This document shows, piece by piece, positions 11,601 through 50,436 of a stretch of 64,000 nucleotides of DNA. The first letter of the stretch is position 1, and the number at the start of each line of letters is the position of its first letter. The translations under genes and the position numbers were made by a program. The stretch covers positions 3,224,001 to 3,288,000 of the forward strand of contig NZ_JAPJDC010000001.1 of the NCBI RefSeq assembly GCF_026241855.1. Reading direction: 5' to 3'. This DNA comes from Curtobacterium flaccumfaciens pv. betae. Lineage in GTDB: Bacteria; Actinomycetota; Actinomycetes; Actinomycetales; Microbacteriaceae. A model generated the notes under the pieces. It did not search any database. It was given only the letters and a program-made list of their open reading frames with translations, and was not told where the DNA came from.

Positions 11601-12530
11601 GGTCTGCTCGACCGGGTGGTAGGACTGCTCGACCTGCCACTTCGCGCTCGGGTTGCCGGCGAGGGCGTCGAGCACGGGGTGCGACAGGTCGCCGGTGTCC
11701 TCGACCATCCCGGTCGCGACCTCGGCGAAGGTGGACACCACGAGTCGGGCGTGCACCGAGAAGCCGGGGATGTGCGCGGTCAGGCCACGCAGGCGGTCGA
11801 TGACGGGGTTCGGCGTGAAGGAGCCGTCCTGCTGCGCGAGGGCCACGAAGGACTGCGCGTCGAGGATGACCCCGAACTGCTCGTGCAGCGCGTCGGCGAG
11901 GCCCGGGTTGAGTACCGGTTCGCCGAGCAGGCGCACCTCGAAGTCGCGTCCGTGTCGGCGGATCGCCAGGGGGCGCAGGAGCACCGGGCCGCGGAACTGC
12001 TCGTCGCCGTGCTTCCAGTCGGCCATGCCGATGCCGAGCTTCACGGCGTCGATGCCGCGCACGGTGGCCAGCTCGGTGCCCTTCGCCTCGACGTGTCCGG
12101 CGGCCACGCGGGCGGCACGGAGCGCCACCTCGTCGCGGATCAGGCTGGACAACAGGGTCGTCTTGCCGGTGATGAACTGCGCGAGACCGCCCGGGTGGGT
12201 GGTCGAGAGCTCGATGCGGGCGCGCGGGTGGTCGCTGAAGTGCGTGAGCGGGCTCGTGCCGCCGACACCGGTCAGCTGGGTGCGCCAGCCGTCCCACGTC
12301 GGTTCGGCCGCGTTGCCGGCCTGCAACCGCGGGTCGCCGAGGCTGATCGCCTGCGGGCTCGTCATCTGCAGCTCCGGGCGGAGCGTGCGGTCCGGCTCGT
12401 CGTCGGTCCGTTCCTGGTCCACGTCCTGCTGCTCGTCTCGATCGTCGTCGGGGCGCGCGCGGGCACCCTCGACGGGGACGTCGTCGTTCACGTCGTCCTC
12501 ACCGTCGGTCACCCTGTCCGCTCGCCACAC
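8685..12530 (-). CDS. Giant SF1 helicase-like protein with degenerate ATPase motifs and endonuclease-fold tail
   Basis: About 1281 residues. An acidic disordered N-terminus (about 1-55) precedes a large accessory region, then an SF1 (AAA_11/AAA_12) helicase core. The Walker A position reads KTLPGTGGTQT (about 346-356), with Gly where the catalytic Lys should be. The Walker B position reads VILVDAGAVT, where the family has a DEAxQ-type sequence. Motif III (VVFGDPVTQTPSP) and motif VI (AVAMTRARRSMVIV) are retained. The tail, with RPEVLRRLGWHYVRVHAF, resembles the MTES_1575 type of restriction-endonuclease fold. It is probably a nucleic-acid binding scaffold rather than an active motor. The GTG at 12530 was chosen because it sits 7 nt after TACAGT; a GTG at 12539 and an ATG at 12365 are alternatives. 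Confidence 0.8.
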   Translation of the reverse strand: MWRADRVTDGEDDVNDDVPVEGARARPDDDRDEQQDVDQERTDDEPDRTLRPELQMTSPQAISLGDPRLQAGNAAEPTWDGWRTQLTGVGGTSPLTHFSDHPRARIELSTTHPGGLAQFITGKTTLLSSLIRDEVALRAARVAAGHVEAKGTELATVRGIDAVKLGIGMADWKHGDEQFRGPVLLRPLAIRRHGRDFEVRLLGEPVLNPGLADALHEQFGVILDAQSFVALAQQDGSFTPNPVIDRLRGLTAHIPGFSVHARLVVSTFAEVATGMVEDTGDLSHPVLDALAGNPSAKWQVEQSYHPVEQTPSDERSPETDTLLLDADDEQENVIAQITAGNSIVVKTLPGTGGTQTIVNALGGLVAANKRVLVVSPRRATLRGIAARFGEVQLPGVAVTPSTLRRDVVRAIARNEKAARPNLREVDDALVRLRKVLKDYRGSLTRKDPDFGVSVLDCLVELSRLSLLPVAPSTTARLSKQSVASMVDGRSRVAETMVSAANLGEFRYGPDDSPWYGAKFGSSDGAQRAHRIAKDLDADGLPTLLRRAHDLVSSTHMRQFTTINELGIYLRLLTEIRDTLDRFLPVVFDRSVSELVAATAPRGEGAPMSSTNRRRLKKLAREYVRPGVHVSDLHEALTRVQQQRVLWQRYVAAGVNPEVPTGIADVQVLFSNVAEDLARLDEPLGRTERDRQLANTPVDQLVPTIAELAAESDVLHNLQERTELMQTLRDLQLEPLITDLANRHVPDVQVPAELELAWWQSALETMLESDRALLGANTDMLDRVEADFRLVDDAHAAGVSQGLAWQLAENWKVGLVDWPEEATALKTQLRDGAITSRLLQDSAPHLSRSIAPVWLASPYEVPQIADTMPFDTVILVDAGAVTIAETVGAVRRARQTVVFGDPVTQTPSPFRIAVDPEHRALQVDEGTLDAFHADSALAKLSTLLPTLSLSRSYRAGGEDLAELVNRRFYGGKIESLPWAGSFLGHGSIALDYVSDGKAVPDPESGAVESVDAEVDRVVRLVIDHARTRPTESLMVITASAKHAVRVEQAVLTAAQGHKDLTEFVIGDRAEPFIVATLEQSVAQSRDRVVFSIGYGRTPHGRVLRDFGPLGKPGGERLLAVAMTRARRSMVIVTCFQPSDIEAERMGHGTVALAEILAEVRARTTAEYVPDDSDPLLVDLARRLEMRGIPVALGHRGKLGLVAAHGGVCVTIETDASLVKGSLRESLRLRPEVLRRLGWHYVRVHAFQLFSDPDRVADTVAAVLGVDRGATQEISIPPIPARR

Positions 12531-38213: not shown

Positions 38214-39317
38214 CTAGCGGCGGAAGCCCTGCAGGAACGCGTGCAGTTCGTCGACGAACAGGTCGGGCTGCTCGAACGGCGCGAAGTGCCCGCCGCGGTC
38301 GAGTTCGTGGTGGAACACGAGGTTCGTGGTGCGCTCGAGCCACTCGCGCGGCGCCCGCACGATGTCGCCGGGGAAGATCGAGAACCCGGACGGCACCTCG
38401 ACCCGTCGCTCCAGCTGCTCCGCCGGGATCGCCGCGTTCGCGTGGTACATCCGCATCGCCGAGCCGATCGTGCCCGTGGCCCAGTACTCGGTGAGCAGCG
38501 CCAGCACCTCGTCGCGCGTGTAGACCGACCACGGGTCCCCGTCGCAGTCGCTCCACGCCCGGAGCTTCTCGAGGATCCAGGCGGCGAGACCCGCGGGCGA
38601 GTCGTTCAGCCCGACGGCGGCGGTCTGCGGCTTCGTGCGGTGCAGCATCGCGTAGGCACCCTCGGCGGTGCGCCACCGATCGGTCGCGGCGACGAACTCC
38701 CGCTCGGCGGCGGACAACGTCGACGCATCGAGGCCCGGCCAGGCGAGCCCGCCGTCGATGCGGTGCACCGCGACCACCCGGTCGGGGTGGTCGAGTGCCA
38801 GGTAGCGGGCGACGTGCGTGCCGATGTCGCCTCCGGACACCGCGAACCGCTCGTACCCCAGGTCCGTCATCAGCGTCGCCCACATGCCGGCCACCTGCCG
38901 GGCGTCGAGAACCTGCGGCGGTGCATCCGAGAACCCGTAGCCGGGCATGTCCGGCACGACGACGTCGTACCCGGCGTCGACGAGCATCGGCAGCACCTTG
39001 CGGTACCGCCAGCCGGAGTCCGGCCAGCCGTGCGCGAGCAGGACCGGCAGGGCATCGGGCCGCGGAGCGCGGGCGTGCAGCAGGTGAATGCCGATGCCGT
39101 CGACGACGACACGGCGCGAGGGCAGCGCGGCGAGCTCGGCACGGTGTGCGTCGAAGTCGAACCCGTCGGCCCAGTACTCGACGAGCGGGCGCAGGACGTC
39201 GAGGTCCACGCCGAGCGACCAGCCGACCCCCGCGGGCGCGTCCGGCCAGCGCGTGGCACGCAGCCGAGCGCGCAGGTCGTCGATGGTCGCGTCGTCGATG
39301 TGCGGTGTCTCGCCCAT
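38214..39317 (-). CDS. Epoxide hydrolase
   Basis: 367 residues. An N-terminal EHN-like region (about 10-75) precedes LLAHGWPDSGW (HGxP, 96-99) and SGGDIGTHVARYL with nucleophile Asp164. GGHFAPFE holds the catalytic His near the C-terminus. It opens epoxides with water via an alkyl-enzyme ester. The ATG at 39317 is preferred over the upstream ATG because TAGCGT lies 7 nt before it. Confidence 0.9.
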   Translation of the reverse strand: MGETPHIDDATIDDLRARLRATRWPDAPAGVGWSLGVDLDVLRPLVEYWADGFDFDAHRAELAALPSRRVVVDGIGIHLLHARAPRPDALPVLLAHGWPDSGWRYRKVLPMLVDAGYDVVVPDMPGYGFSDAPPQVLDARQVAGMWATLMTDLGYERFAVSGGDIGTHVARYLALDHPDRVVAVHRIDGGLAWPGLDASTLSAAEREFVAATDRWRTAEGAYAMLHRTKPQTAAVGLNDSPAGLAAWILEKLRAWSDCDGDPWSVYTRDEVLALLTEYWATGTIGSAMRMYHANAAIPAEQLERRVEVPSGFSIFPGDIVRAPREWLERTTNLVFHHELDRGGHFAPFEQPDLFVDELHAFLQGFRR

Positions 39318-39324
39318 GTCGGCG

Positions 39325-39330
39325 ACGCTA
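39325..39330 (-). promoter_or_regulatory. -10 box TAGCGT, leaderless start
   Basis: Ends 7 nt before the epoxide hydrolase ATG at 39317. Confidence 0.5.
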
Positions 39331-39365
39331 GTCAGCGCCACCGACGATCGGAAGCCCGCAGCCGA

Positions 39366-40091
39366 TCAGGTCAGCGGTGCGTCCCGACCGGCCTCGAACA
39401 ACACCCGGATGGCGTCCGCCCGGATCCACCGCTCGCTCAGGCAGAGCGGTCGCTCGTCGTCGCGGTCCGACGTCAAGCTCTCGATGAACCAGCCGAGCGT
39501 GACCTCGTCGAGGTCCAGGTGCCGGGCGACGTCCTCGGACACCACGTCGGCGGTCGCACGGACCCATCGGCGGTGCGGCGTGGATCGTCCCACCTGCCGG
39601 AGCACCTCGTACAGCGAGTCACTGACCTGCAGCGCCTCGGCGAGCTCGGGCACGATCGCCGGCGGGACCCACTCCACGCCCCACGCAGCCGGCAGCCCGT
39701 CGACCAGTGAGCGCCGGGTCAGGCGGTGCACGGGCGCTCCCGGTTGCAGGTCGAGGGACTCGGCGATGCGCGGCGGGACGGGGACCAGTGCACACGACAG
39801 CGTCACGCTCGACGGCTTGCCACCGGCGGCGCGGACGGTGTGACTCCACGACGGTGCCGCCCGCGAACCGATCAGGTAGTCGATGCGGCGTGCGACGAAG
39901 CTGCCGACGCCCTTCACCCGGCGGATGCGGTTACGCCGCTGCAGGTGCTGCAGCGCTGCCCGGGCGGCGGACCGCCCGACGCCGAACCGCGCCGCCAGCT
40001 CCGCCTCGCTGGCCACCCGCGAGCCGATCGGCAGATCGGCCAGCTCGCCCTCCAGGGCGGCGGCGATGTCGAGGTATCGGGTCTCCGGCAC
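39366..40091 (-). CDS. GntR/HutC-type regulator of the phosphonate locus
   Basis: 241 residues. The N-terminal winged helix (about 6-75) has YLDIAAALEGELADLPIGSR and FGVGRSAARAALQHLQRRN. The C-terminal region (about 85-235) is the UTRA ligand domain of the HutC/PhnF group (PVHRLTRRS, PLCLSERWIRAD). The GTG start at 40091 lies 6 nt after TACAGT. It is divergent from the phosphonate catabolic genes and its own promoter region carries the palindrome 40129-40142. It probably senses a phosphonate or its product. Confidence 0.87.
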   Translation of the reverse strand: MPETRYLDIAAALEGELADLPIGSRVASEAELAARFGVGRSAARAALQHLQRRNRIRRVKGVGSFVARRIDYLIGSRAAPSWSHTVRAAGGKPSSVTLSCALVPVPPRIAESLDLQPGAPVHRLTRRSLVDGLPAAWGVEWVPPAIVPELAEALQVSDSLYEVLRQVGRSTPHRRWVRATADVVSEDVARHLDLDEVTLGWFIESLTSDRDDERPLCLSERWIRADAIRVLFEAGRDAPLT

Positions 40092-40128: not shown

Positions 40129-40142
40129 CCTGTCCGGACAGG
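40129..40142. promoter_or_regulatory. Candidate GntR operator, copy 1
   Basis: CCTGTCCGGACAGG, a perfect 14-bp palindrome, extendable to GCCTGTCCGGACAGGC at 40128-40143. Its core GTCCGGAC resembles the GTCTAGAC core of HutC-type operators. Located between the divergent GntR and HAD genes. Identical 14-mers lie at 47972 and 49089. Confidence 0.75.
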
Positions 40143-40267
40143 CCGTGACGAGCCTCCCGGCGTCGTTCACCTGGCGGACACCTGCGCACCGTCTGCCCGC
40201 CACGGGGCGCTCCGACGCTGGTCGGACCGCGCCGGTCCCGGCGTGACGGCACGAACCCAGGAGTCCC

Positions 40268-40963
40268 ATGATCTCGCTCGTCTGCCTCGACATGGCAGGA
40301 ACCACCGTCGACGACGGTGGCGTCGTCCTCGACGCCTTCCGCACCGCGCTCACCGACGTCGGCCTCGAGCACGGGAGCTCGGAGCACGACCGTGCGGTGC
40401 AGTACGCGGTCGACACCATGGGCCAGTCGAAGATCGCCGTGTTCACGGCACTCTTCGACGGGGACGGCGACCGTGCCGAGGCTGCGAACACCGCGTTCGA
40501 GCGCGCGTACGCCCGCACCCTCGACCGCGGCGTGCGGCCGGTGGACGGCGCCGTCGAGACGCTCGTCGCACTCCGCGCAGCGGGGCGACGGATCGCGCTG
40601 ACCACCGGGTTCTCGCCCGCGACGCGCGACGCGGTGCTCGACCTGCTCGGCTGGCGGCCGCTGATCGACCTCGCGCTCTCCCCCGCCGACGCCGGCCGCG
40701 GGCGCCCGTACCCGGACATGGTGCTCGCCGCCGTGCTCCGGACCGGCACCGACGACGTCCGCGACGTGGCGGTCGTCGGGGACACCGTCGCCGACCTGCT
40801 CACGGGACACCGCGCCGGCGCGTCGGTCGTGGCGGGCGTGCGGACCGGGACGCACCAGGACGCCGACTTCGCGACCGTCCTGCACACCCACGTCCTCGAC
40901 TCGGTCACCGAGGTGCCGTCGGTGCTCGCCGAGGTCGAGGACGCCGCCCGGGTCCTGGCGTGA
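40268..40963 (+). CDS. PhnX-like HAD hydrolase (phosphonatase-like)
   Basis: 231 residues. LDMAGTTVDD carries nucleophile Asp8 followed by Ala10, the D-x-AGT signature of phosphonatase rather than the D-x-D of other HADs. MGQSKIAV places Lys55 where PhnX has its Schiff-base lysine. RPYPDMVLAA and VVGDTVADLL complete the HAD motifs. The family (TIGR03351-like) is found in phosphonate operons and would cleave a C-P bond or a phosphate ester of a phosphono-aldehyde. GGAG precedes the ATG. It overlaps the dehydrogenase gene by 4 bp. Confidence 0.87.
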   Translation: MISLVCLDMAGTTVDDGGVVLDAFRTALTDVGLEHGSSEHDRAVQYAVDTMGQSKIAVFTALFDGDGDRAEAANTAFERAYARTLDRGVRPVDGAVETLVALRAAGRRIALTTGFSPATRDAVLDLLGWRPLIDLALSPADAGRGRPYPDMVLAAVLRTGTDDVRDVAVVGDTVADLLTGHRAGASVVAGVRTGTHQDADFATVLHTHVLDSVTEVPSVLAEVEDAARVLA

Positions 40964-42027
40964 CGCCGGTGCGCGCCGACGCCCGGTACGCCCTGTGGCA
41001 CGGCGTCGGCGCCCCGGTCACCGTCGAGTCGCTGCCGTCGACGACGCTGCCGGACGGCGGTGTGCTCGTCGAGGTCGAGCTGGCCACCGTGTGCGGCAGC
41101 GACCTGCACACCGCGCTCGGCCACCGTCCGGGTCCGACACCGAGTGTCCTCGGCCACGAACAGGTCGGCCGCGTCGTCGCGGTCGACGCCGTGCCGCCGA
41201 CCACCGTCCAGGGACAGCCGGTCCGGGTCGGTGACCGCGTCGTGTGGTCGGTCGCCGCGTCGTGCGGCGACTGCGACCGGTGCGCGTCGGGCATCCCGCA
41301 GAAGTGCCGCTCCCTGCGGAAGTACGGTCACGAGGCCGTCACCGCGGACTGGACGCTGAACGGCGGCTTCGCCACGCACTGCGTCCTGCTCCCCGGCACG
41401 GCGATCGCGGTCGTCCCCGCGCACGTGCCGGCGGCCGTCGCCGCGCCGGCGGCCTGCGCCACGGCTACGGTGGCCGCGGCTCTCGACGCAGTGCAGCGAC
41501 CGCTCGACGGCGCGCGGGTCCTGGTCACCGGTGCCGGCATGCTCGGGATCACCGCCGTCGCGATGGCCGTCGACGCGGGTGCCACCGTGACCGTCTCCGA
41601 CCCGAACGCGGGCCGACGTGCCCGGGCGGTCTGCTTCGGCGCGGCGCGGGCCGTCGCCCCGGGTGACGCGATCGGGTCCTTCGACGTCGCGGTCGAGCTG
41701 TCCGGCCACCCCGATGCGGTCGAGGCGGCGGTGGACTCCCTCGACGTCGACGGTGTCGCCGTGCTCGTCGGCGCGGTCTCGACCAGCCGTGCGGTGACCA
41801 TCGACCCGGAGCAGATCGTGCGGCGGCTGAACCGGATCGTCGGGGTCCACAACTACGCGCCCCGGCACCTCGCGACCGCGGTGGCCTTCCTCGCGCGCAG
41901 CGAGCTGCCCTTCGCGGACCTGGTCGAGCGGTCGGTCGGCCTCGACGCGGTCGGGCACGCCGTCACGACACCGCCGTCGGACGGGTTCCTGCGCCGCGGG
42001 GTCGACCCGGCGGCCGCCGTGGTGTGA
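40960..42027 (+). CDS. Phosphonate-associated zinc alcohol dehydrogenase
   Basis: 355 residues. Cys45, His66 and Glu67 (VCGSD, GHEQVG) form the catalytic zinc site, and CGDCDRCASGIPQKC (Cys102, 105, 108, 116) the structural zinc lobe. VTGAGMLGITAVAMA binds NAD(P). The layout fits the dehydrogenase family proposed for phosphonate catabolism (TIGR03366-like), where it would interconvert an alcohol and a phosphono-aldehyde for the HAD enzyme. The GTGA start overlap with the HAD stop implies coupling. Confidence 0.87.
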   Translation: MTPVRADARYALWHGVGAPVTVESLPSTTLPDGGVLVEVELATVCGSDLHTALGHRPGPTPSVLGHEQVGRVVAVDAVPPTTVQGQPVRVGDRVVWSVAASCGDCDRCASGIPQKCRSLRKYGHEAVTADWTLNGGFATHCVLLPGTAIAVVPAHVPAAVAAPAACATATVAAALDAVQRPLDGARVLVTGAGMLGITAVAMAVDAGATVTVSDPNAGRRARAVCFGAARAVAPGDAIGSFDVAVELSGHPDAVEAAVDSLDVDGVAVLVGAVSTSRAVTIDPEQIVRRLNRIVGVHNYAPRHLATAVAFLARSELPFADLVERSVGLDAVGHAVTTPPSDGFLRRGVDPAAAVV

Positions 42028-42034
42028 TGGCTGC

Positions 42035-43144
42035 GTGACGACCTTCACCGCTGCCCGTGTCCACCGGGGCGACGGCGGGACGCCGGGTTCGTCCTTCGCC
42101 GTGCGCGACGACGTGGTCGTCGAGGCGTCGGACGGACCGGTGGTCGACCTCGGCGACGTCGACGTCCTGCCGGGTCTGGTCGACCTGCACGCCGACTCGC
42201 TGTCCCGCTTCGAACAGCCGCGCCCCGGCGTCCCGGTGCCGCTCGGGCACGCGCTCGAGTCCTTCGCCGCCGACGCCCTGCTCGCCGGCGTGACGACCGC
42301 CCTGCTGTGCTGCTCGGTGGAGCACGCGACGGCTCCGGCGCGCAGCGCCGAGCACGCCGCCGCCGTCCTCGACGCGGTCGCCGCGTCCGACCTGCCGGTC
42401 GACGTCCGCGTGCACCTGCGCGTCGACGTCACCCACGACGACGCCGTGGCGGCGGCCGGGAGGCTCGTGGCGGCCCATCCGGATCGGGTCACCCTGGTCT
42501 CGTACATGGACCACACCCCCGGACGCGGCCAGTACTCGACCGTCGCCGCCTGGAGACGGGCCTACCGCGCACTCGACCGCGCCGACGACGAGGTGCTCGA
42601 TGCCCGCCTTGCGGCGTTCCACGCCGGTGCCGAGGGCATCGGCCGCCGACGAGCGGCCATCGCCGAACTCGCGAACCGGGCCGGTGTCGTCGTCGCAGCA
42701 CACGACGACGAGACGCCCGAGGCCGTCCTCGAGGCCAGGCGGCTCGGCGCCCGGATCTCGGAGTTCCCGGTCACCGAGCGCGCTGCGGCCGCGGCGATCG
42801 ACGCCGGGCTCGGGGTCGTCGTCGGTGCCCCGAACCTCTGGCGGGGCGGGTCGCACGGCTCCGGGCTGTCCGCTCGCGCGGCGATCGCGGCCGGTCGGGC
42901 CGACGTGGTGGCGTCGGACTACCAGCTCGGGTCGCTGCTGCCGGGGCTGCGAGCGGCCGCCACCGCCGGGGTTGCACCGTTCGCCGAGCTCGTCGCGACG
43001 GTCACCCGGAACCCCGCGGAACACGTCGGGCTTCCGGACCGGGGGCTCCTCGCACCGGGTCGCCGTGCGGACTTCGTCGCCGTGCGCGAGGACCGTGTGG
43101 TCGGTGTCTGGCGCGACGGCCGGCAGCGGCTGTTCCGCGACTGA
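42035..43144 (+). CDS. PhnM-like amidohydrolase
   Basis: 369 residues. LPGLVDLHADSL (His52, Asp54) is the metal-binding start, with RPGV as in PhnM. VTLVSYMDHTPGRGQ and VVAAHDDETPE supply further ligands, and ASDYQLGSLLPG is the C-terminal Asp block. In C-P lyase pathways PhnM removes pyrophosphate from ribosyl methylphosphonate triphosphate. Here the rest of that pathway is absent, so the substrate is probably different. Starts 7 nt after the dehydrogenase stop. Confidence 0.82.
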   Translation: MTTFTAARVHRGDGGTPGSSFAVRDDVVVEASDGPVVDLGDVDVLPGLVDLHADSLSRFEQPRPGVPVPLGHALESFAADALLAGVTTALLCCSVEHATAPARSAEHAAAVLDAVAASDLPVDVRVHLRVDVTHDDAVAAAGRLVAAHPDRVTLVSYMDHTPGRGQYSTVAAWRRAYRALDRADDEVLDARLAAFHAGAEGIGRRRAAIAELANRAGVVVAAHDDETPEAVLEARRLGARISEFPVTERAAAAAIDAGLGVVVGAPNLWRGGSHGSGLSARAAIAAGRADVVASDYQLGSLLPGLRAAATAGVAPFAELVATVTRNPAEHVGLPDRGLLAPGRRADFVAVREDRVVGVWRDGRQRLFRD

Positions 43145-43191
43145 CGGTCTCCCCGCCGAAGACCACCGGGGGCAGCCGAGGACCGCCGGGG

Positions 43192-44292
43192 TCAGCCGAG
43201 GACCGTCGGCGCGATGCCGAGGCCGGTCGTCATGCCGATGCCCGTGGTGACCGTCACGACGTCGACGCCCGGGACCGGCCGGTCGATGAGGAACTCCCGC
43301 CCCGGGGCCGAGGCGTAGACGCCCTGCCACCGGTCGACCACGGAGACCGGCGCACCGAACAGCCGCTCGGTCTCGGTGACGAGCAGCCGGAAGCCGTCCT
43401 CGTCCTGGAACGGTGGCGCGTCGACCTCGCGCTCGTGGGTGTCCCCGACGATGACGCTGCCGTCCGGCGGTGACGTGTACATCTGGTTGAGGTCCCAGCG
43501 GATCCCCTCGGGCAGGTCGGCGGCGAGCCGGTCCCGCAGGGCACCCGCTCCGGGCATCGCGGCGAACCCCGAGTAGCGCAGCAGCGACCACCCGGTCAGC
43601 AGCGGTGTGGCGAGCGGGAAGGCGAGCGGGATCGTCGCTCGCAGCATGTGGAGCCGGCAGCGGACCAGACCGATCGACTCGGCGAGCTCCGGGAAGAGCT
43701 GGTCGAGGTCGTGGTTGGTGCAGACGACGATCCGGGTCCCCTCCACGACGCCACGACCGGTGCGGACGGCGCCGGTGGTGACCTCGAGCGCGGGGGTGCG
43801 CCAGTGGAAGGTGACCCCCTGCCCGGCGAGCCAGCGCGCGATCGCGGGTGCCGCCTCCCGGGGGTCGACCTGCAGGTCGTGCGCGAGGTGCGCGCCGCCG
43901 AGGGCCGTAGCGGGATCGACCGGCACCGCCGCGGCGATCTCGGCCGCGTCGGCCAGCCGCAGGTCCGCGCCGGAGTCGCGGTACTCCTCGAGCACCGCCA
44001 GCTCCTCGGGGCGACGGGCGACGACGTGTGCACCGCGTTCGCGCGCCGTGAACCCGGCGAGCTGCGCGAGTGCGAGCCAGCGGCGGCGTGCCTCCTGCGC
44101 GTAGCCGGCTGCCTCCCCGGTCTGCGGGGTGACGCAGGCGTGCCCAAAGTTCCGGACACTCGCACCGACGACCGCGGCCGCACGGTCGACCACCGCGACC
44201 CGGGCGCCCTGCCGGAGTGCCTCGTAGGCCATGCCGAGCCCGACGATGCCCGCGCCGACCACGACGACGTCGTACCGTTCCGTCGCGCTCAC
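43192..44292 (-). CDS. FAD-dependent oxidoreductase of the phosphonate-associated type
   Basis: 366 residues. YDVVVVGAGIVGLGMAYEA (about 7-25) is the FAD-binding Rossmann start of the DAO family, and VTVTTGIGMTTGLGIAPT the C-terminal FAD contact. RNFGHACVTPQTGEA is typical of the TIGR03364-like group that sits in phosphonate operons with PhnX-like hydrolases. It probably oxidises an amine of an aminophosphonate to the aldehyde. The GTG start overlaps the permease stop by 4 bp; last gene of the uptake operon. Confidence 0.87.
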   Translation of the reverse strand: MSATERYDVVVVGAGIVGLGMAYEALRQGARVAVVDRAAAVVGASVRNFGHACVTPQTGEAAGYAQEARRRWLALAQLAGFTARERGAHVVARRPEELAVLEEYRDSGADLRLADAAEIAAAVPVDPATALGGAHLAHDLQVDPREAAPAIARWLAGQGVTFHWRTPALEVTTGAVRTGRGVVEGTRIVVCTNHDLDQLFPELAESIGLVRCRLHMLRATIPLAFPLATPLLTGWSLLRYSGFAAMPGAGALRDRLAADLPEGIRWDLNQMYTSPPDGSVIVGDTHEREVDAPPFQDEDGFRLLVTETERLFGAPVSVVDRWQGVYASAPGREFLIDRPVPGVDVVTVTTGIGMTTGLGIAPTVLG

Positions 44293-46034
44293 CGGAACAC
44301 CCGCCGCAGCCACATGGCCAGGCCCTCGGTGACGAGCACCGTGACCAGGATGAGCAGGACGATCGCGGTGACGGACGCGTAGTTCGATCCCTGCGCTGCA
44401 TTGAGGAGGTAGTAGCCGATGCCGCCACCTCCGACGATGCCGAGGATCGTCGCCGCACGGATGTTCGTGTCGAGCAGGTAGAAGGTGTGCCCGAGCATCG
44501 CGCGGAACCCCTGCGGCACCGTCGCCGAGGCGTAGCGCTGCAGGCGACCCGCGCCGGTGGCCGTGACGGCGCGCTCGGGCCCGGGAGCGACCTCTTCGAG
44601 CGAGTCCGCGATCAGCTTGCCGAGGAGCCCGATGCCGCCGAAGGCCAGGGCGAGGGTCCCCGCCTGCGCACCGAGCCCCGTCACGACGATGAGCACGACC
44701 GCGAGGATCGTCTCCGGGATCCCGCGGACGACGACGAGCAGCAGCCGTGCGCCGCCCCGGACCCCGCGTCCAGGAGCGACGTTGCGGGCAGCGAGGGACC
44801 CGATGACGAGCGAGAGCAGCAGCGCGAGGACGGTCGCGGCGAGGGCGATCGCGACGGTGTCGAACATCGCGCCGAACATGATGCCGGCGCCGTAGCTGCC
44901 GAAGGACGGCGGCCAGAACTGCACGGCGACGGCGGGGATCTTGCCCCACACGGTGACCAGGTCACCCCAGGCGATGTCGCAGACCACGACACTGCCGACG
45001 ACGACGGCCAGGGCGACCCAGCACCAGATCGCGTTCCGGACCCGGACGGGGGTCCACGGACGACGGAGGGTGCCCTCGACCGTCGCAGCGACCGGTCGCT
45101 GCGTGGCCGGTACGGCCTCGGCTCGCTGGCGGTCCCGCCGACGCATCCACCGACGGGCAGCCGTGGCACCGATGCCGCGCCCGGCCGGGGCCACACCGAG
45201 CATGGCGGCGCGAACCGAGCTGGAGACGATCTCCATCAGGACGCACAGGCCGAAGATGACGATGGCGTACCCGATGCCGAGTGAGTAGTCGAGCGACTTG
45301 AACGCGAAGGACATCTCGCGGCCGAGGCCGACGATGCCGACGTACCCGAGGATGACCGACCCGCGCAGGTTGATGTCGTTGCGGTGGAGGATCGTCGCGA
45401 CCCACGACGGCAGCACCTGCGGGAGCACCCCGGCGGTGAACTGCTGCGCACGGCTCCCCCCGGCTGCCCGGATCGCGTTGCGCGGTCCTTCGTCGATCTG
45501 CTCGATGGCGTCCGCGAAGAGCTTCGAGATCATCCCGACGGAGTGGATGCCGATCGCCAGGATCCCGGGCAGCGGACCGATCGTGAAGACCAGGACGAAC
45601 ACCATCGCGAGGACGACGTCCGGCACGGCCCGGGTCAGGACGCTGACGAACCGCGCGGCAGCCACCCACCCGCGGCCCGGGCTGGTGTTCGCTGCCGCCA
45701 GGTACGCGACGGGAACGCTCAGCGCGGCGGCGAGCAGGGTGCCGAGCAGGACGAGCCCGACGGTGAGCGCGGTCTGCTGCAGCAGCACCGGGGCGGCCGG
45801 GAACCGGACGGTGCCCACACGCTGGAAGAAGTGCTCGGCGTTCGACCACGACGCGATGATGTTCGGGATCGAGATGTCGACCCGCGCGACCGCGACGCAC
45901 GCAAGCACGCCGAGGGCGACGAGGGTGAGCACCGCAGCGGTGCGCTCCGGCGAGACCCGGCGGCGGGGTGCCCGACGGGCCACGTCCTCGGCGAGCGCCG
46001 CCGCGGTTCCGGGTCGGGTGTCGAGCGTCGTCAC
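44289..46034 (-). CDS. phnE: Phosphonate ABC transporter permease, two fused PhnE domains
   Basis: 581 residues, about twice a normal PhnE. Domain 1 (about 60-310) and domain 2 (about 330-580) each have a full set of helices and their own EAA-type loop (GGSRAQQFTAGVLPQ in the first; GAGRLQRYASATVPQ in the second), joined by an Arg-rich cytoplasmic linker (about 290-330). It thus replaces the usual phnE1/phnE2 pair. Overlaps the ATPase and flavoprotein genes by 4 bp on either side. Confidence 0.93.
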   Translation of the reverse strand: MTTLDTRPGTAAALAEDVARRAPRRRVSPERTAAVLTLVALGVLACVAVARVDISIPNIIASWSNAEHFFQRVGTVRFPAAPVLLQQTALTVGLVLLGTLLAAALSVPVAYLAAANTSPGRGWVAAARFVSVLTRAVPDVVLAMVFVLVFTIGPLPGILAIGIHSVGMISKLFADAIEQIDEGPRNAIRAAGGSRAQQFTAGVLPQVLPSWVATILHRNDINLRGSVILGYVGIVGLGREMSFAFKSLDYSLGIGYAIVIFGLCVLMEIVSSSVRAAMLGVAPAGRGIGATAARRWMRRRDRQRAEAVPATQRPVAATVEGTLRRPWTPVRVRNAIWCWVALAVVVGSVVVCDIAWGDLVTVWGKIPAVAVQFWPPSFGSYGAGIMFGAMFDTVAIALAATVLALLLSLVIGSLAARNVAPGRGVRGGARLLLVVVRGIPETILAVVLIVVTGLGAQAGTLALAFGGIGLLGKLIADSLEEVAPGPERAVTATGAGRLQRYASATVPQGFRAMLGHTFYLLDTNIRAATILGIVGGGGIGYYLLNAAQGSNYASVTAIVLLILVTVLVTEGLAMWLRRVFR

Positions 46035-46867
46035 GAGGTCCGCTCCCCCGCGTCGAGTGCGTGCAGCTCGGCCTCGATGGTGGCGAACTCGTCGGTGCTC
46101 GTCGCGACCTGCCCGTAGATCTCCATGACCTCCGCCTTGCCGAGGCCGTCGGTCCTGGTGTCCAGCACGACCTCGCCGTGCCGGAGCCCGATGATCCGGT
46201 CCGCCCACGACAGGGCCAGGTCGACCTGGTGCAGGCTGCAGAGCACCGTCAGGCCACGGTCGGCGGCGATCTCGCGGATGAGGCGCATGACCTGCCCGCT
46301 GGACTCCGGGTCGAGCGAGGCGACCGGTTCATCGGCCAGGAGCACCGTCGGGTCCTGCATGAGCGCCCGGGCGATCGCGACGCGCTGCTGCTGCCCGCCC
46401 GACAGGGTGTCGGCCCGCTGGTAGGCGCGGTCGAGCAGCCCGACGCGGTCGAGGTGCCCGAGTGCAGTGCGACGGAGGCCGCGCGGGTACGACCAGAGGC
46501 CGAGCCGCGGGCCGCGGAGGGTCGCGAGCGCTCCGGTGAGCACGTTCTCGAGCACGGTGAGCGCCGGCACGAGTTCGAACTGCTGGAACACGAACCCGAC
46601 GCGACTCCGCAGCTCGCGCAGACGACGCCCGGTCAGGCGGTGCACCTCGGTCCCGTCCACCCGGACGCTGCCGGACGTCGGGAGCTCGAGCGCGTCGACG
46701 TGTCGGAGCAGGGTGCTCTTGCCGGAGCCCGACAGCCCGAGCAGCACGACGACCTCGCCCTGCCCGACGCGCAGCGACACGTCGCGCAACGCCGTCGTGT
46801 CGCCGAAGCGCTTCGTCAGGCCGGTGATCTCGACGGCCGGGGTGCCGACCGGTGCATGGTTCGTCAT
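46031..46867 (-). CDS. phnC: Phosphonate ABC transporter ATP-binding protein
   Basis: 278 residues. Walker A GLSGSGKST (44-52), Q-loop FQQFELVPAL, signature LSGGQQQRVAIARAL, Walker B VLLADEPVASLDP and switch SLHQVDLALS are intact, as in PhnC. It drives uptake with PhnD and the double PhnE. GAGGAG lies 4 nt before the ATG. Starts 35 nt after the phnD stop. Confidence 0.95.
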   Translation of the reverse strand: MTNHAPVGTPAVEITGLTKRFGDTTALRDVSLRVGQGEVVVLLGLSGSGKSTLLRHVDALELPTSGSVRVDGTEVHRLTGRRLRELRSRVGFVFQQFELVPALTVLENVLTGALATLRGPRLGLWSYPRGLRRTALGHLDRVGLLDRAYQRADTLSGGQQQRVAIARALMQDPTVLLADEPVASLDPESSGQVMRLIREIAADRGLTVLCSLHQVDLALSWADRIIGLRHGEVVLDTRTDGLGKAEVMEIYGQVATSTDEFATIEAELHALDAGERTS

Positions 46868-46902
46868 GGTGCTCCTCGGGCTGCCGTCTCGCGGTCGCCG
46901 GG

Positions 46903-47844
46903 TCAGGCCTGGCAGGTGGTCGACTTCGTCGTCTTGCAGATGTCGCGGATCAGGTCGTAGTACTCGTCGTCGACGGGCTTGGTGCCGTAGAAGACGCTGC
47001 GGAAGCCGTCGCTGTCGGCGCTGGTCACACCGGCGTCGATGATCTGGTCGATGGTGACGTCGGACAGCGCCTTCGTCAGCGTCTCCTTCTCGGCCGACGG
47101 CAGGGTGTCGGAGACGACGATCGGGGCGCCGGGGACCATCGTCTTCGCGACGACGCGCACGTCGTCGTTCTTCTCGACCTCGCTGTCCTCGGCGAACCCG
47201 GCGTCGCACTCGGTGCCCGCCGCGACCTTCTGGACGCTGACGTCGTGCTTGCCGGCGAACACCGGGGTGACGTCGGTCTTCGGATCGACGCCCGCCTTGA
47301 GCAGGTTGTAGCTCGGGAACAGGTAGCCCGAGGTCGACGAGGGGTCGACGAAGCAGACCTTCTTGCCGGCGAAGTCCTTCAGCGAGTCGATGTCGCTGTC
47401 CTTCGGCACGATGGCCTCGGAGTAGTACCCGGGCTTCTGCCCCTCGGCGGTGATGATGGAGGAGATCGGGGTGATCTTCGCGCCGTTGTTCTTCGCCGTG
47501 ACGTAGGTGAACCCGGAGAACGACGCGACGTCGATCTTGCCCGCGACGGACGCCTCGATGAGCGCGGCGTAGTCGGTCGACTCGTGGTACTCGACCTTCT
47601 TGCCGGTCTCCTTCGCGATGTAGTCCATCAGCGGCTGGTAGTTCGTCTCGGTGTCCACGGAGTCGGGGACCACGCCGAACACGATGGTGTTCTCGTCCGC
47701 GGCGTACTGCACGGCGTCGGAGCCGCCTGCGGGGCTGCCGTCACCGGTCGCGGCGGTGGAGCCTGCGGAGCAGGAACTGAGCGTGGCGACGAGGGCCAGG
47801 GCGCCGGCCAGCGCGACGAGCGACTTGCGTGCGGAGATGGGCAT
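46903..47844 (-). CDS. phnD: Phosphonate ABC transporter substrate-binding lipoprotein
   Basis: 313 residues. Signal ALALVATLSSC with lipobox Cys25, then a PhnD-type fold: VFGVVPDSVDTETNYQPL, YAALIEASVAGKIDVASFSG and VCFVDPSSTSGYLFPSYNLL, the phosphonate-binding Ser/Thr turn. It captures phosphonates or phosphate analogues outside the membrane. GAAAGG precedes the ATG at 47844. First gene of the transport operon; the palindrome 47972-47985 lies 128 bp upstream. Confidence 0.94.
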   Translation of the reverse strand: MPISARKSLVALAGALALVATLSSCSAGSTAATGDGSPAGGSDAVQYAADENTIVFGVVPDSVDTETNYQPLMDYIAKETGKKVEYHESTDYAALIEASVAGKIDVASFSGFTYVTAKNNGAKITPISSIITAEGQKPGYYSEAIVPKDSDIDSLKDFAGKKVCFVDPSSTSGYLFPSYNLLKAGVDPKTDVTPVFAGKHDVSVQKVAAGTECDAGFAEDSEVEKNDDVRVVAKTMVPGAPIVVSDTLPSAEKETLTKALSDVTIDQIIDAGVTSADSDGFRSVFYGTKPVDDEYYDLIRDICKTTKSTTCQA

Positions 47845-47971
47845 GATGACCTTTCGGGCGGTTCGGGGGGGGCGGGTCCGGTGCGGACGACCGCAACTGT
47901 CGCAGCCGACCGGTGGAGCGGAGTTCCGTCCCGGTACACGCGGCGTGGACGGCAGGTGAACTCGGTTGGCA

Positions 47972-47985
47972 CCTGTCCGGACAGG
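47972..47985. promoter_or_regulatory. Candidate GntR operator, copy 2
   Basis: CCTGTCCGGACAGG, identical to the copies at 40129 and 49089, located 128 bp upstream of phnD. Confidence 0.75.
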
Positions 47986-48033
47986 CCGCCGTCGCCGCCG
48001 TCGCAGCAATCACCGTCGCCGTCGCCGTCGTCG

Positions 48034-48906
48034 TCAGAGCGCGAGCAGCGCGATGCCGCCGAGCACGACCACCGCGGCACCGACCCGGGCGAGCGCACGG
48101 CCTTCGCGGAGCACCAGCACCCCGAACAGGCTGACGAGCACGACGCTCACCTCGCGCATCGGGGCGACGAGCGCCACGGGAGCGATGCCGATCGCGACCA
48201 GCACGAGGATGTACGACAGCGGCGACAGCACCCCGAACGCGAGCACCCGCGGCCAGTGCTGCCGCAGCACGGGCAGGACCTCGCGCCGCCGCGACCCGAG
48301 GGCCAGTCCGAAGAACACGACCTCGACCGCCGTGCACCCGACCATGAACGCGACCGGTGCGACACCGAGGTCGCGGACGACGTAGGCGTCCCAGATCGTG
48401 TACGCGGCGATCGCCACCCCGGTGAGCAGACCCGCGACGAGCCCGGGGTCGATCCGCCTCGGCGGGAGCTCCGTCGACGTCGTCCCCCGGTCGGCGAGCC
48501 CGACGGCGACCACACCGACGAGCACCAGGAGCCCGCCGACCAGGGCGATCCAGTGCGGGCGCTCACCCAGGAGCACGATCGCCAGGACGACGCTGATCGT
48601 CGGCCCGGTCCCCCGCGCCGTGGCGTACACCGTCGACAGCCGGCCGACCCGGTACCCGCGCTGCAGCACCAGCATGTACAGGACGTGCAGCACCCCGGAC
48701 GCGGCGACGCCGAGCACGAACCCGCCGGGGTCCGCGTCGCCGAGTCCCCCGGTGAACGGGACCACACCGATCCAGACCACCACGCTCGACACCGCGCCGA
48801 GCCACAGGAACGGCATCCCGATCCGGCTCACCCCGTGGGCGATGACGTTCCACCCCGCGTGGGCGACGGCGGCGGACAGGACGAGGAGGACGGCGAGCGG
48901 TGTCAC
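48034..48906 (-). CDS. DMT/EamA-type membrane protein of the phosphonate locus
   Basis: 290 residues, ten hydrophobic helices in two EamA halves (about 1-125 and 145-290). It resembles the DUF6-like membrane family that accompanies phosphonate utilisation genes (TIGR03340). The function is not established: export of an intermediate, or uptake, are both possible. The operator copy at 49089 lies 183 bp upstream of its ATG. Confidence 0.82.
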   Translation of the reverse strand: MTPLAVLLVLSAAVAHAGWNVIAHGVSRIGMPFLWLGAVSSVVVWIGVVPFTGGLGDADPGGFVLGVAASGVLHVLYMLVLQRGYRVGRLSTVYATARGTGPTISVVLAIVLLGERPHWIALVGGLLVLVGVVAVGLADRGTTSTELPPRRIDPGLVAGLLTGVAIAAYTIWDAYVVRDLGVAPVAFMVGCTAVEVVFFGLALGSRRREVLPVLRQHWPRVLAFGVLSPLSYILVLVAIGIAPVALVAPMREVSVVLVSLFGVLVLREGRALARVGAAVVVLGGIALLAL

Positions 48907-49088
48907 GGCAGGACCTTCTGCCCGGCGCGCGGCGCGACGGGCGAGGTCCTCCAGGCTTTTGTCCGTTCAGATGACGGCCCGCGTTCGGTGGCGGACCGTG
49001 GCGCCGCTCGGACCAGTCGGACGGGGAGTCCCGGAACCCTAGGCGCTGTCGACGGGGACGCTAACACCGCCGAGGCGGCCGCCGCCAA

Positions 49089-49102
49089 CCTGTCCGGACA
49101 GG
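49089..49102. promoter_or_regulatory. Candidate GntR operator, copy 3
   Basis: CCTGTCCGGACAGG, 183 bp upstream of the DMT gene at 48906, identical to the two other copies of the phosphonate locus. Confidence 0.75.
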
Positions 49103-49185
49103 CGCTGACGCGCGTTCACGCGCCGTTCGGCGGACGTTCCCCGGCGCCGTCAGATCGTGTCCGGTCCGGAAGCCGCAGACGAGCG

Positions 49186-49260: not shown

Positions 49261-50436
49261 CTACGCGGTCTGCTGACCGCCGTTCCGCACCCGGGTGACC
49301 TCCTGTCGGGTGAACGCGATGTGATCCGGGTCGTCGACGTGCGGGAGCGCTTCGGCGAGGTCGTGGATCGCGGTCAGCAGCACGCGGCGTCGTCGGCGCT
49401 CCTGCCGGGATCCGGCCGCCTTGACGTACCGCCGCCGAGTCTTCCGGGTACCGACGACGGCGTCGAGTTCGTCCCTCGAGAGCAGCCCCGCCGCCACCTC
49501 GGGCGCGAGCACCGTGCGGAGGTCCTCCTGCTCGGGGCGGACCGCGAACCGGAAGACGCGGAACACCACGAACACGACGATCACCGTCAGGATCGCGATG
49601 AACACCAGGTTGAAGGCCTGCAAGGGGCCGACGAGCGCGCCGAGGTCGTCCCAGAGGCCGTGCATGGCCATCGCGAGGACCATCAGCCCGACACCCAACC
49701 CCACCCGTCGGCGCTGGACGGGACTGCCGGCGAGCAGGAACAGCCCGGTCGCGAAGATCGCGGAGTACGCGATGTGCCCGGCGACCCCGGTCGCCATCCG
49801 GACCACCAGCGTCTCCAGCCCCGCCAGGAACGGGTGCGCGCCGAAGTTCGCACCGGAGGTCTGCGCGACGTAGAGCACGTCCTCGACGACCTGGAACCCG
49901 AGCCCGAGGAACGCCCCCAGGATGAACGCGTCGAACGTGGTCCGGACGATCCGCGGTGCCAGGGTAATCAGGAGCACCAGACCGATGCCCTTCGAGACCT
50001 CTTCGGTGAAGGGCGCGGTGAGCCCGGCTGCCCAGTCGGCGGCCCAGCGTTGCCCGAAGGTCTTGCCGTACAGGCCGAGGATCGCGTCGTTGGCGTAGAT
50101 CGCCATGAAGAACGTCGCCGCGGTGGCACCCCAGAGGAACGCGTGGACCACGAGGCTGATCGGCAGGGTCGAGTACCGGTCCATCGCACGGGTCGCCCAC
50201 CAGAACAGGGCCGCGTAGAGGACCAGGACCAGGCTGTTGGTCGTGACCGCCGAGGCGAACGGTGCCGCGGCCGGCTGCACGAACTTCACCGCGTTCCAGA
50301 GGCCGGCGATCACCAGCACCCAGAACACCCAGAACGCGGCGTTCCGCGGCTGGAACACCTCCATCCGCAGGCCCCATCCGGACCGTTCGAAGACGGCCGT
50401 CCGCGCCTGCTCCAGCTCGGTCGGCACCGACGACAC
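49261..50436 (-). CDS. PrsW family intramembrane protease
   Basis: 391 residues, about eight or nine helices (from about 35 to 290). TAPFTEEVSKG (Glu145, Glu146, Lys149) is the EExxK-type metal motif; GFQVVEDVLYV and MAMHGLWDDLGAL give the conserved Glu and His of the second and third motifs. A basic C-terminal cytoplasmic tail (about 300-391) contains RRRRR. PrsW-type enzymes cleave anti-sigma factors or other membrane proteins. GTG start. Upstream is a coupled pair of small genes on the same strand. Confidence 0.88.
   Translation of the reverse strand: MSSVPTELEQARTAVFERSGWGLRMEVFQPRNAAFWVFWVLVIAGLWNAVKFVQPAAAPFASAVTTNSLVLVLYAALFWWATRAMDRYSTLPISLVVHAFLWGATAATFFMAIYANDAILGLYGKTFGQRWAADWAAGLTAPFTEEVSKGIGLVLLITLAPRIVRTTFDAFILGAFLGLGFQVVEDVLYVAQTSGANFGAHPFLAGLETLVVRMATGVAGHIAYSAIFATGLFLLAGSPVQRRRVGLGVGLMVLAMAMHGLWDDLGALVGPLQAFNLVFIAILTVIVVFVVFRVFRFAVRPEQEDLRTVLAPEVAAGLLSRDELDAVVGTRKTRRRYVKAAGSRQERRRRRVLLTAIHDLAEALPHVDDPDHIAFTRQEVTRVRNGGQQTA

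What the first reader, a model, noticed from the sequence alone, without database searches (positions are those of the whole stretch)
40129..49102. A 14-bp palindrome marks a three-promoter phosphonate regulon
CCTGTCCGGACAGG occurs exactly at 40129, 47972 and 49089. The first lies over the -35 region of the GntR gene and between it and the catabolic genes; the second is upstream of phnD; the third is upstream of the DMT gene. I noticed no other copy in the window. The GTCCGGAC core resembles HutC-type operators. This points to one regulator controlling import, catabolism and the membrane protein.
Basis: partly seen in the sequence, partly recalled or inferred. Interest (0 to 1): 0.82.

Follow-up and report, generated by a model that had tools for sequence, protein, structure and literature searches.

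The report
Phosphonate-gene switch with conserved DNA tag
A plant-associated bacterium marks each promoter of its phosphonate-scavenging genes with the same short mirror-image DNA tag, which many related bacteria also keep next to the same kind of repressor gene, and beside each tag lies what looks like a phosphate-starvation switch, so the genes probably turn on only when phosphate is scarce and a phosphonate is present.

Summary
Confirmed and extended. CCTGTCCGGACAGG occurs three times in the window and in the whole 3.78-Mb Curtobacterium genome, always in the phn cluster (0.03-0.10 expected). Of 66 Curtobacterium genomes, only the five with this GntR hold three or more copies of the 12-bp core. 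Of all 4096 12-bp palindromes, TTGTCCGGACAA ranks first near phn/GntR starts in 61 homologous loci outside Curtobacterium (54 of 61). Of the 64 GntR loci, 39 are C-P lyase operons and 16 are oxidase/phosphonatase-like clusters as here, so one regulator-operator pair serves two C-P-cleaving chemistries. The HutC-type regulator lacks the arginine that reads G-5 in NagR and keeps the one for G-4, fitting TTGTCC.

Most likely PhoP activates and GntR represses until a phosphonate binds. Binding, repression and effector are inferred. Caveats: the bare 12-mer is common (218 of 394 actinobacterial genomes), and strong two-unit PHO repeats were seen only in oxidase-type loci. New variant of a known kind.

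The parts
40129..40142 (.). operator 1 (CCTGTCCGGACAGG), between divergent GntR and PhnX-like genes
   Evidence: identical in the window and 3 other Curtobacterium loci
47972..47985 (.). operator 2, 127 bp upstream of the phnD start
   Evidence: identical in the window and 2 other Curtobacterium loci
49089..49102 (.). operator 3, 182 bp upstream of the DMT gene start
   Evidence: identical in the window and 2 other Curtobacterium loci
40165..40182 (+). PHO-box-like direct repeat GTTCACC-N4-GGACACC, 22 bp from operator 1
   Evidence: 12 of 14 matches, one of the three best two-unit hits of the window; conserved
47933..47961 (-). PHO-box-like triple direct repeat GTTCACC/GTCCACG/GTGTACC, 10 bp from operator 2
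   Evidence: 17 of 21, joint best three-unit hit of the window; first unit conserved
49114..49142 (+). PHO-box-like triple direct repeat GTTCACG/GTTCGGC/GTTCCCC, 11 bp from operator 3, pointing away from the DMT gene
   Evidence: 17 of 21, joint best three-unit hit of the window; first two units conserved in 3 Curtobacterium loci
39366..40091 (-). GntR/HutC-type regulator (GntR wHTH + UTRA), PhnF-like but below the PhnF cut-off; start GTG 40091 inferred
40268..40963 (+). phosphonatase-like HAD hydrolase (TIGR03351, 207.2 bits, cut-off 218.9)
40960..42027 (+). HpnZ, phosphonate-associated zinc alcohol dehydrogenase (TIGR03366, above cut-off)
42035..43144 (+). PhnM-like amidohydrolase (TIGR02318 269.8 bits, below cut-off 390.55; NF011990 above cut-off) in a genome without PhnJ
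43192..44292 (-). HpnW FAD oxidoreductase (TIGR03364, above cut-off), family in which PbfD1 is annotated; start inferred
44289..46034 (-). PhnE, two permease domains in one protein (start inferred)
   Evidence: two TIGR01097 stretches
46031..46867 (-). PhnC, phosphonate ABC transporter ATPase (start inferred)
   Evidence: above TIGR02315 cut-off
46903..47844 (-). PhnD-type binding protein (TIGR01098 above cut-off; TIGR03431 below)
48034..48906 (-). DMT/EamA membrane protein, weak match to TIGR03340 (94.1 bits, cut-off 288.15)
38214..39341 (-). epoxide-hydrolase-like gene downstream of GntR; probably a passenger, not found in loci L022 and L023

Best explanation
The palindrome is the operator of the neighbouring HutC-type GntR protein. 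The regulator most likely sits as a dimer on three promoter regions (its own/PhnX-like, phnD-phnC-phnE-HpnW, DMT) and represses import, catabolism and the membrane protein together until a phosphonate or a phosphonate-derived metabolite binds its UTRA domain. Each promoter also carries a GTTCACC direct repeat resembling the PHO box of the phosphate-starvation regulator PhoP, so expression most likely needs both low phosphate and inducer. Shown here by sequence: the sites are confined to this cluster in the genome, co-occur with the regulator, and are conserved in sequence and position across actinobacteria; PHO-box-like repeats lie beside the three sites. Inferred: binding, repression rather than activation, PhoP binding, and the effector (an imported aminophosphonate is my guess, about 0.4).
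For: Three of three exact genomic copies lie in the cluster. Of 66 Curtobacterium genomes, the 5 with the GntR hold 4, 4, 3, 3 and 4 copies of CTGTCCGGACAG; of the other 61, 42 hold none, 18 one and one two. In 61 GntR loci outside Curtobacterium, TTGTCCGGACAA (at most 1 mismatch) is first of 4096 palindromes within 250 bp upstream of GntR (45 loci, 13 of 23 genus labels; runner-up 9 loci) and within about 400 bp of any phn/GntR start (54 loci, 20 of 23 genus labels; runner-up 36). In a class-wide draw, 5 of 6 loci of the close GntR clade (E under 1e-100) have the site at a phn promoter and 0 of 4 more distant GntR loci do. NagR reads G-5 with Arg38 and G-4 with Arg48 (PMC4333415, passages). 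Aligned here, Arg38 corresponds to Ala30, with no Arg in 61 of 61 loci examined, and Arg48 to Arg40, invariant in 61 of 61; the operator has T at -5 and G at -4. PHO-like repeats: the two best three-unit GTTCACC hits of the window lie beside operators 2 and 3, the one beside operator 1 is among the three best two-unit hits, and a perfect two-unit box lies upstream of the genome's pstS-like gene. Two-unit score 12 or more within 80 bp of 14 of 69 operators (7 of 9 Curtobacterium, 7 of 60 others) versus 0.31% of random windows.
Against: No binding or expression data. The 12-bp core is not rare: YTGTCCGGACAR occurs in 218 of 394 actinobacterial genomes, while 9 of the 394 have a GntR of this profile. 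Seven of 64 GntR loci have no site under the criteria (L025, L026, L029, L048, L056, L082, L084). In the 13 non-Curtobacterium oxidase-type loci alone the motif is first but barely (10 loci versus 9 for other palindromes). G210 keeps one site upstream of HpnW but has no close GntR. Four genomes of the family sample outside the genus have one exact copy each without a close GntR. All 14 operators with a strong PHO-like repeat are in oxidase-type loci (14 of 22 there, 0 of 47 elsewhere; with types); C-P lyase loci mostly show one GTTCACC unit, which could be a -35 element. A high-scoring GTTCACC repeat also lies inside a gene (49309-49326). The repeat at operator 3 points away from the DMT gene. 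Lack of Arg at position 30 is not unique to this clade (2ra5 has Ile).
Confidence: 0.85

Rival explanations
1. The palindrome is an operator, but of a different regulator; this GntR is only a neighbour.
For: The 12-mer occurs widely without this GntR. G043, G134, G174 and G187, outside the genus, each have one exact 14-mer and no close GntR; no phosphonate cluster was found by blast around those sites. G210 keeps a site without a close GntR.
Against: At genus level three or more copies occur only where the GntR is. The site sits upstream of the GntR gene itself in 45 of 61 non-Curtobacterium loci and was not found beside 4 more distant GntR genes. Residue and base changes agree.
Confidence: 0.08
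2. The regulator is an activator, or activates some promoters, rather than a repressor.
For: Operators 2 and 3 lie 127 and 182 bp upstream of start codons, and operator 2 lies upstream of its PHO-like repeat, which is compatible with activation or cooperation with PhoP.
Against: NagR, a HutC-type relative, is a repressor (PMC4333415, passages). At the GntR promoter of most C-P lyase loci the operator lies 18-28 bp before the start extrapolated from blast, a repressor position.
Confidence: 0.12
3. The three copies are chance or a recent duplication of one stretch, without function.
For: The three copies are identical in sequence.
Against: Expected 0.03-0.10 copies in the genome. The 14 bp are identical in 10 of 10 aligned Curtobacterium sites while the flanks diverge between species, and the flanks of the three sites differ from each other.
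Confidence: 0.02
4. The GTTCACC repeats are not PHO boxes, so control is by GntR alone.
For: Several units match only in part (5 of 7), one comparable hit lies inside a gene, and strong repeats are missing at operators of C-P lyase loci. I know of no study of PhoP in this genus (recalled; not searched by itself).
Against: The repeats are the best or among the best of the window, conserved across Curtobacterium species, and a perfect GTTCACC-N4-GTTCACC lies upstream of the pstS-like gene.
Confidence: 0.2

Closest known systems
PhnF of Mycobacterium smegmatis (GntR family; PDB 3f8l, and 3f8m as a related chain)
   Same: Repressor beside phnDCE that binds two sites in the bidirectional promoter region; phnDCE expression rises under phosphate limitation (PMC7866108, passages). 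Both chains match the clade profile.
   Different: M. smegmatis phnDCE is reported to carry phosphate, not phosphonate. The solved chain 3f8m has Arg at the position where this clade has none; that 3f8m is from M. smegmatis is recalled. The PhnF operator TGGTATAGACCA is recalled from memory and could not be checked.
NagR/DasR (dre-site regulators)
   Same: Same domain plan; GTC-N2-GAC operator spacing; Arg48-equivalent kept.
   Different: The idealised dre half-site has GG where this operator has TG, and this clade lacks the Arg38-equivalent (the dre letters TGGTCTAGACCA were recalled, and the NagR and DasR papers listed contain them). Target genes differ.
E. coli phn cluster / Pho regulon
   Same: Phosphonate genes with a regulator gene phnF and a PHO box (PMC7866108, passages).
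   Different: In the window the catabolic genes are oxidase/phosphonatase-like, not C-P lyase.
PbfD-type clusters (N-methyl-AEP/AEP oxidation to phosphonoacetaldehyde, then PhnX)
   Same: HpnW belongs to TIGR03364, the family in which PbfD1 is annotated (PMC10590968, passages).
   Different: Here with a PhnX-like hydrolase slightly below its family cut-off, HpnZ and an orphan PhnM; the words regulator and GntR have no occurrence in that paper's main text.

Membership tests
GntR/HutC subfamily | GntR wHTH plus UTRA domain | tested here: met
   PF00392 37.0 bits (cut-off 27), PF07702 82.8 bits (cut-off 23.8)
GntR/HutC subfamily | base-reading Arg48-equivalent and wing glycine | tested here: met
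   R40, G61 and G63 invariant in 61 of 61; alignments. L082 and L084 were left out of that count, L083 did not enter.
GntR/HutC subfamily | binds palindromic operator, binding modulated by effector | not testable with these tools
   needs gel shift and ligand titration
PhnF equivalog (TIGR02325) | score over the curated cut-off | tested here: not met
   94.3 bits, cut-off 156.8 (window protein only)
PhnF equivalog (TIGR02325) | located with phosphonate genes | tested here: met
   39 of 64 loci have C-P lyase genes, 16 oxidase-type genes, 1 both, 8 undetermined
PhnR equivalog (TIGR03337) | score over the curated cut-off | tested here: not met
   67.7 bits, cut-off 296.75
NagR/DasR dre regulon | GG at -5/-4 of the half-site and Arg38-equivalent | tested here: not met
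   half-site TTGTCC/CTGTCC; no Arg in 61 of 61
Pho regulon (PHO box) | two or more 11-nt GTTCACC-type direct repeats in the promoter | tested here: met
   all three window promoters; the repeat at operator 1 has units matching 7 and 5 of 7
Pho regulon (PHO box) | PhoP binding and induction by phosphate starvation | not testable with these tools
   no wet-lab data

The most novel reading that the evidence does not exclude
A single repressor-operator pair, spread over about 20 actinobacterial genera, was kept while the C-P-cleaving chemistry behind it was exchanged (C-P lyase versus FAD oxidase/phosphonatase-like). The inducer must then be something both pathways share, such as a PhnDCE-imported phosphonate or a PhnM-linked metabolite. 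The PhnM kept in 15 of 16 oxidase-type loci would then have an unknown C-P-lyase-independent role, perhaps in making or clearing that inducer.
Probability: 0.3. Interest if true: 0.62.

Novelty: new variant of a known kind. Interest (0 to 1): 0.5.

Why it matters
It gives a testable operator code for phosphonate use across actinobacteria, where the passages I saw of a 2021 review (PMC7866108) mention a GntR gene in such clusters without naming its operator. It would link phosphate starvation and phosphonate sensing at the same promoters, lets regulon members such as the DMT protein be named by promoter, and points to an unexplained PhnM in a genome without PhnJ.

Tried and rejected
Loose matching (3 mismatches) gave no clear enrichment in the window. 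The bare 12-mer as a marker was rejected: 218 of 394 class-level genomes hold it. The three further genomic copies of TGTCCGGACA (C1:1223749, 2271279, 3066198) were judged to lie inside coding ORFs by reading (part of whose output was cut, for other loci) and set aside. A first family scan of HpnW was out of frame and found nothing (protein 5); repeated in frame. C-P lyase elsewhere in the genome was rejected: PhnJ is not found in G000 and is found in 6 other Curtobacterium genomes, none with this GntR. Two of those 6 were read at length (L161, L162): they have another GntR and no such site. A try at reading the operators of distant GntR clades by palindromes gave nothing firm. The PhnM tree (only the top part printed) did not settle whether oxidase-type PhnM has one origin. 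L085-L087 (partial matches) were dropped before all counts. In the GntR tree L083 did not enter (63 rows), and the join of L082 with Curtobacterium is unsafe. Literature: 10 searches. The operator letters were searched (1 paper, unrelated; 32 papers, 20 listed, none on phosphonates by title); most subscription papers are not held.
Full report
OBSERVATION. CCTGTCCGGACAGG is present exactly at the three stated places and nowhere else in the window. The genome (3,783,190 bases, two contigs) has these three exact copies only; three one-mismatch copies lie elsewhere. Markov expectations are 0.03-0.10 copies per genome. The 10-bp core TGTCCGGACA occurs six times in the genome; I judge the three outside the cluster to lie in coding ORFs.

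ORGANISM AND GENES. The regulator is 100% identical to that of Curtobacterium flaccumfaciens LMG 3645 (L021), and G204, marked same species as the window's genome, shares L021's site coordinates, so the window is most likely that species. The cluster encodes a HutC-type GntR protein (UTRA; PhnF-like at 94.3 bits against a cut-off of 156.8), a phosphonatase-like HAD protein, HpnZ, a PhnM-like protein, HpnW, PhnE with two permease domains, PhnC, PhnD and a DMT membrane protein. HpnW's family TIGR03364 is the one in which PbfD1 is annotated, an enzyme shown to oxidise N-methyl-AEP and AEP to phosphonoacetaldehyde (PMC10590968, passages). PhnJ, the C-P lyase core, was not found in the genome.

CO-OCCURRENCE. 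In a family sample of 199 genomes, the 14-mer is in 6. Only the two genomes with a close GntR have three copies (G000, G031), four others have one each, and a third GntR match (G164, 38% identity) has none. In the 66 genomes of the genus that the tool held, the GntR is in 5, with 4, 4, 3, 3 and 4 copies of CTGTCCGGACAG; 42 of the other 61 have none, 18 have one and one has two. One of the fourth copies is the window genome's C1:1223748, outside the cluster. G210 has HpnW, a PhnX-like gene and the epoxide hydrolase at 92-95% identity, with one site upstream of HpnW, but no close GntR: a natural loss or partial copy.

ACROSS ACTINOBACTERIA. A profile scan of named genomes gave 67 loci; I used the 64 with a near-full-length match (L021-L084). 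Near the GntR start, TTGTCCGGACAA with at most one mismatch occurs in 45 of 61 non-Curtobacterium loci (13 of 23 genus labels, two of the labels being family- or order-level bins); the runner-up among all 4096 palindromes has 9. Within about 400 bp of any phn/GntR start it has 54 of 61 loci and 20 of 23 labels, runner-up 36. In the 39 C-P lyase loci it is 37 against 29 for the runner-up; in the 13 non-Curtobacterium oxidase-type loci only 10 against 9. Gene maps show two layouts: C-P lyase loci, typically phnDCE-operator-GntR-phnGHIJKLM (Pseudonocardia, Prauserella, Amycolatopsis, Mycobacterium, Nocardia, Rhodococcus, Streptomyces and others), and clusters with HpnW and/or PhnX-like, HpnZ and PhnM without C-P lyase genes in the locus (Curtobacterium, Agromyces, Promicromonosporaceae, Jiangellaceae, Frankia, one Streptomyces), where the operator often lies at the phnD/phnM or PhnX-like promoter. 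C-P lyase loci: 39 of 64; oxidase-type: 16; both: 1; undetermined: 8. In the GntR tree all 38 C-P-lyase-type rows fall on one side of a branch with support 100/99 (63 rows). In a class-wide draw (394 genomes, 9 with a match at E up to 1e-40, 10 matches), 5 of 6 loci scoring E under 1e-100 had the site at a phn promoter and 0 of 4 more distant loci did; several of these are the same places as loci, so this is not independent. Against this, the 12-mer alone is in 218 of 394 genomes, and 7 of 64 loci have no site (criteria).

WHY THIS SEQUENCE. NagR contacts G-5 through Arg38 and G-4 through Arg48 (PMC4333415, passages). In the alignments these correspond to Ala30 and Arg40 of the window's protein. 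Of 61 loci (L082 and L084 left out, L083 not in the set), none has Arg at 30 and all have Arg at 40. DasR, NagR and the chain 3f8m have Arg at the first position; 2ra5 has Ile. The operator has T at -5 and G at -4. This is a consistency argument, not proof of binding.

SECOND INPUT. Alignment of the promoters of three or four Curtobacterium loci shows the palindrome identical in 10 of 10 sites amid diverged flanks, plus a conserved GTTCACC-type repeat. GTTCACC is the most conserved PHO-box motif of S. coelicolor, and PHO boxes are 11-nt direct repeats (PMC4415409, passages). Scoring the whole window on both strands, the two best three-unit hits (17 of 21) are 49114-49142 and 47933-47961, next to operators 3 and 2. 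The repeat next to operator 1 (40165-40182) is one of the three best two-unit hits (12 of 14); another of those three (49309-49326) lies inside a gene. The positive control, a pstS-like gene of the same genome (TIGR00975, 203.4 bits, just under the cut-off of 205), has a perfect two-unit box upstream. Over 69 operators in the 64 loci, 14 have a two-unit score of 12 or more within 80 bp, against 0.31% of random windows. Seven of the 14 are Curtobacterium sites; by the types all 14 are in oxidase-type loci (14 of 22 such operators, 0 of 47 others). In the other loci a GTTCACC unit with at most one mismatch sits exactly 38 bp before the operator at 31 sites, all at GntR promoters, under nine genus labels; since usually one unit is clear there, a -35 element is an alternative.

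MECHANISM. Most likely the GntR dimer represses all three promoters and is released by an imported phosphonate or a product of it, while PhoP activates under phosphate starvation. My odds: GntR binds the palindrome 0.9; repression rather than activation 0.85; PHO-like repeats functional in Curtobacterium 0.8; aminophosphonate as inducer 0.4.

NOVELTY. HutC-type phosphonate repressors and PHO boxes are known kinds. Not found in the held library are this operator sequence, its spread over two C-P-cleaving chemistries, the matching absence of the Arg38-equivalent, and the pairing with PHO-like repeats. The primary papers on M. smegmatis PhnF were not held.

Noticed in passing
window 42035-43144; oxidase-type loci: A PhnM-like protein is kept in 15 of 16 oxidase-type clusters without C-P lyase genes in the locus, and no PhnJ was found in G000: an orphan PhnM of unknown role.
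   Followed up: partly
L153 (G210) 9042-12413: A reduced cluster in another Curtobacterium: epoxide hydrolase, PhnX-like and HpnW at 92-95% identity with one operator, but no GntR, transporter, HpnZ or PhnM found in the stretch.
   Followed up: partly
L161 and L162 (G207, G220): Two Curtobacterium genomes with C-P lyase have a different GntR (29% identity in L162) and share a CAAGTT...AACTTG inverted repeat before the lyase genes instead of this operator.
   Followed up: partly
L166 and L167 (G134, G187): Two genomes of another genus in the family carry the palindrome once, with no phosphonate cluster found around it; by my reading of ORFs (partly cut), the neighbours look like deoC and an aldehyde dehydrogenase.
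   Followed up: no
L164 near 10776: A more distant GntR beside C-P lyase genes has the related palindrome CTTGACTAGACAAG nearby, perhaps its own operator.
   Followed up: no
window 44289-46034: PhnE is one protein with two PhnE domains (two TIGR01097 stretches).
   Followed up: no
L036 9455-9707: The Frankia locus has three spaced operator-like sites before its PhnX-like gene, two with TTGTGCGGACAA.
   Followed up: no
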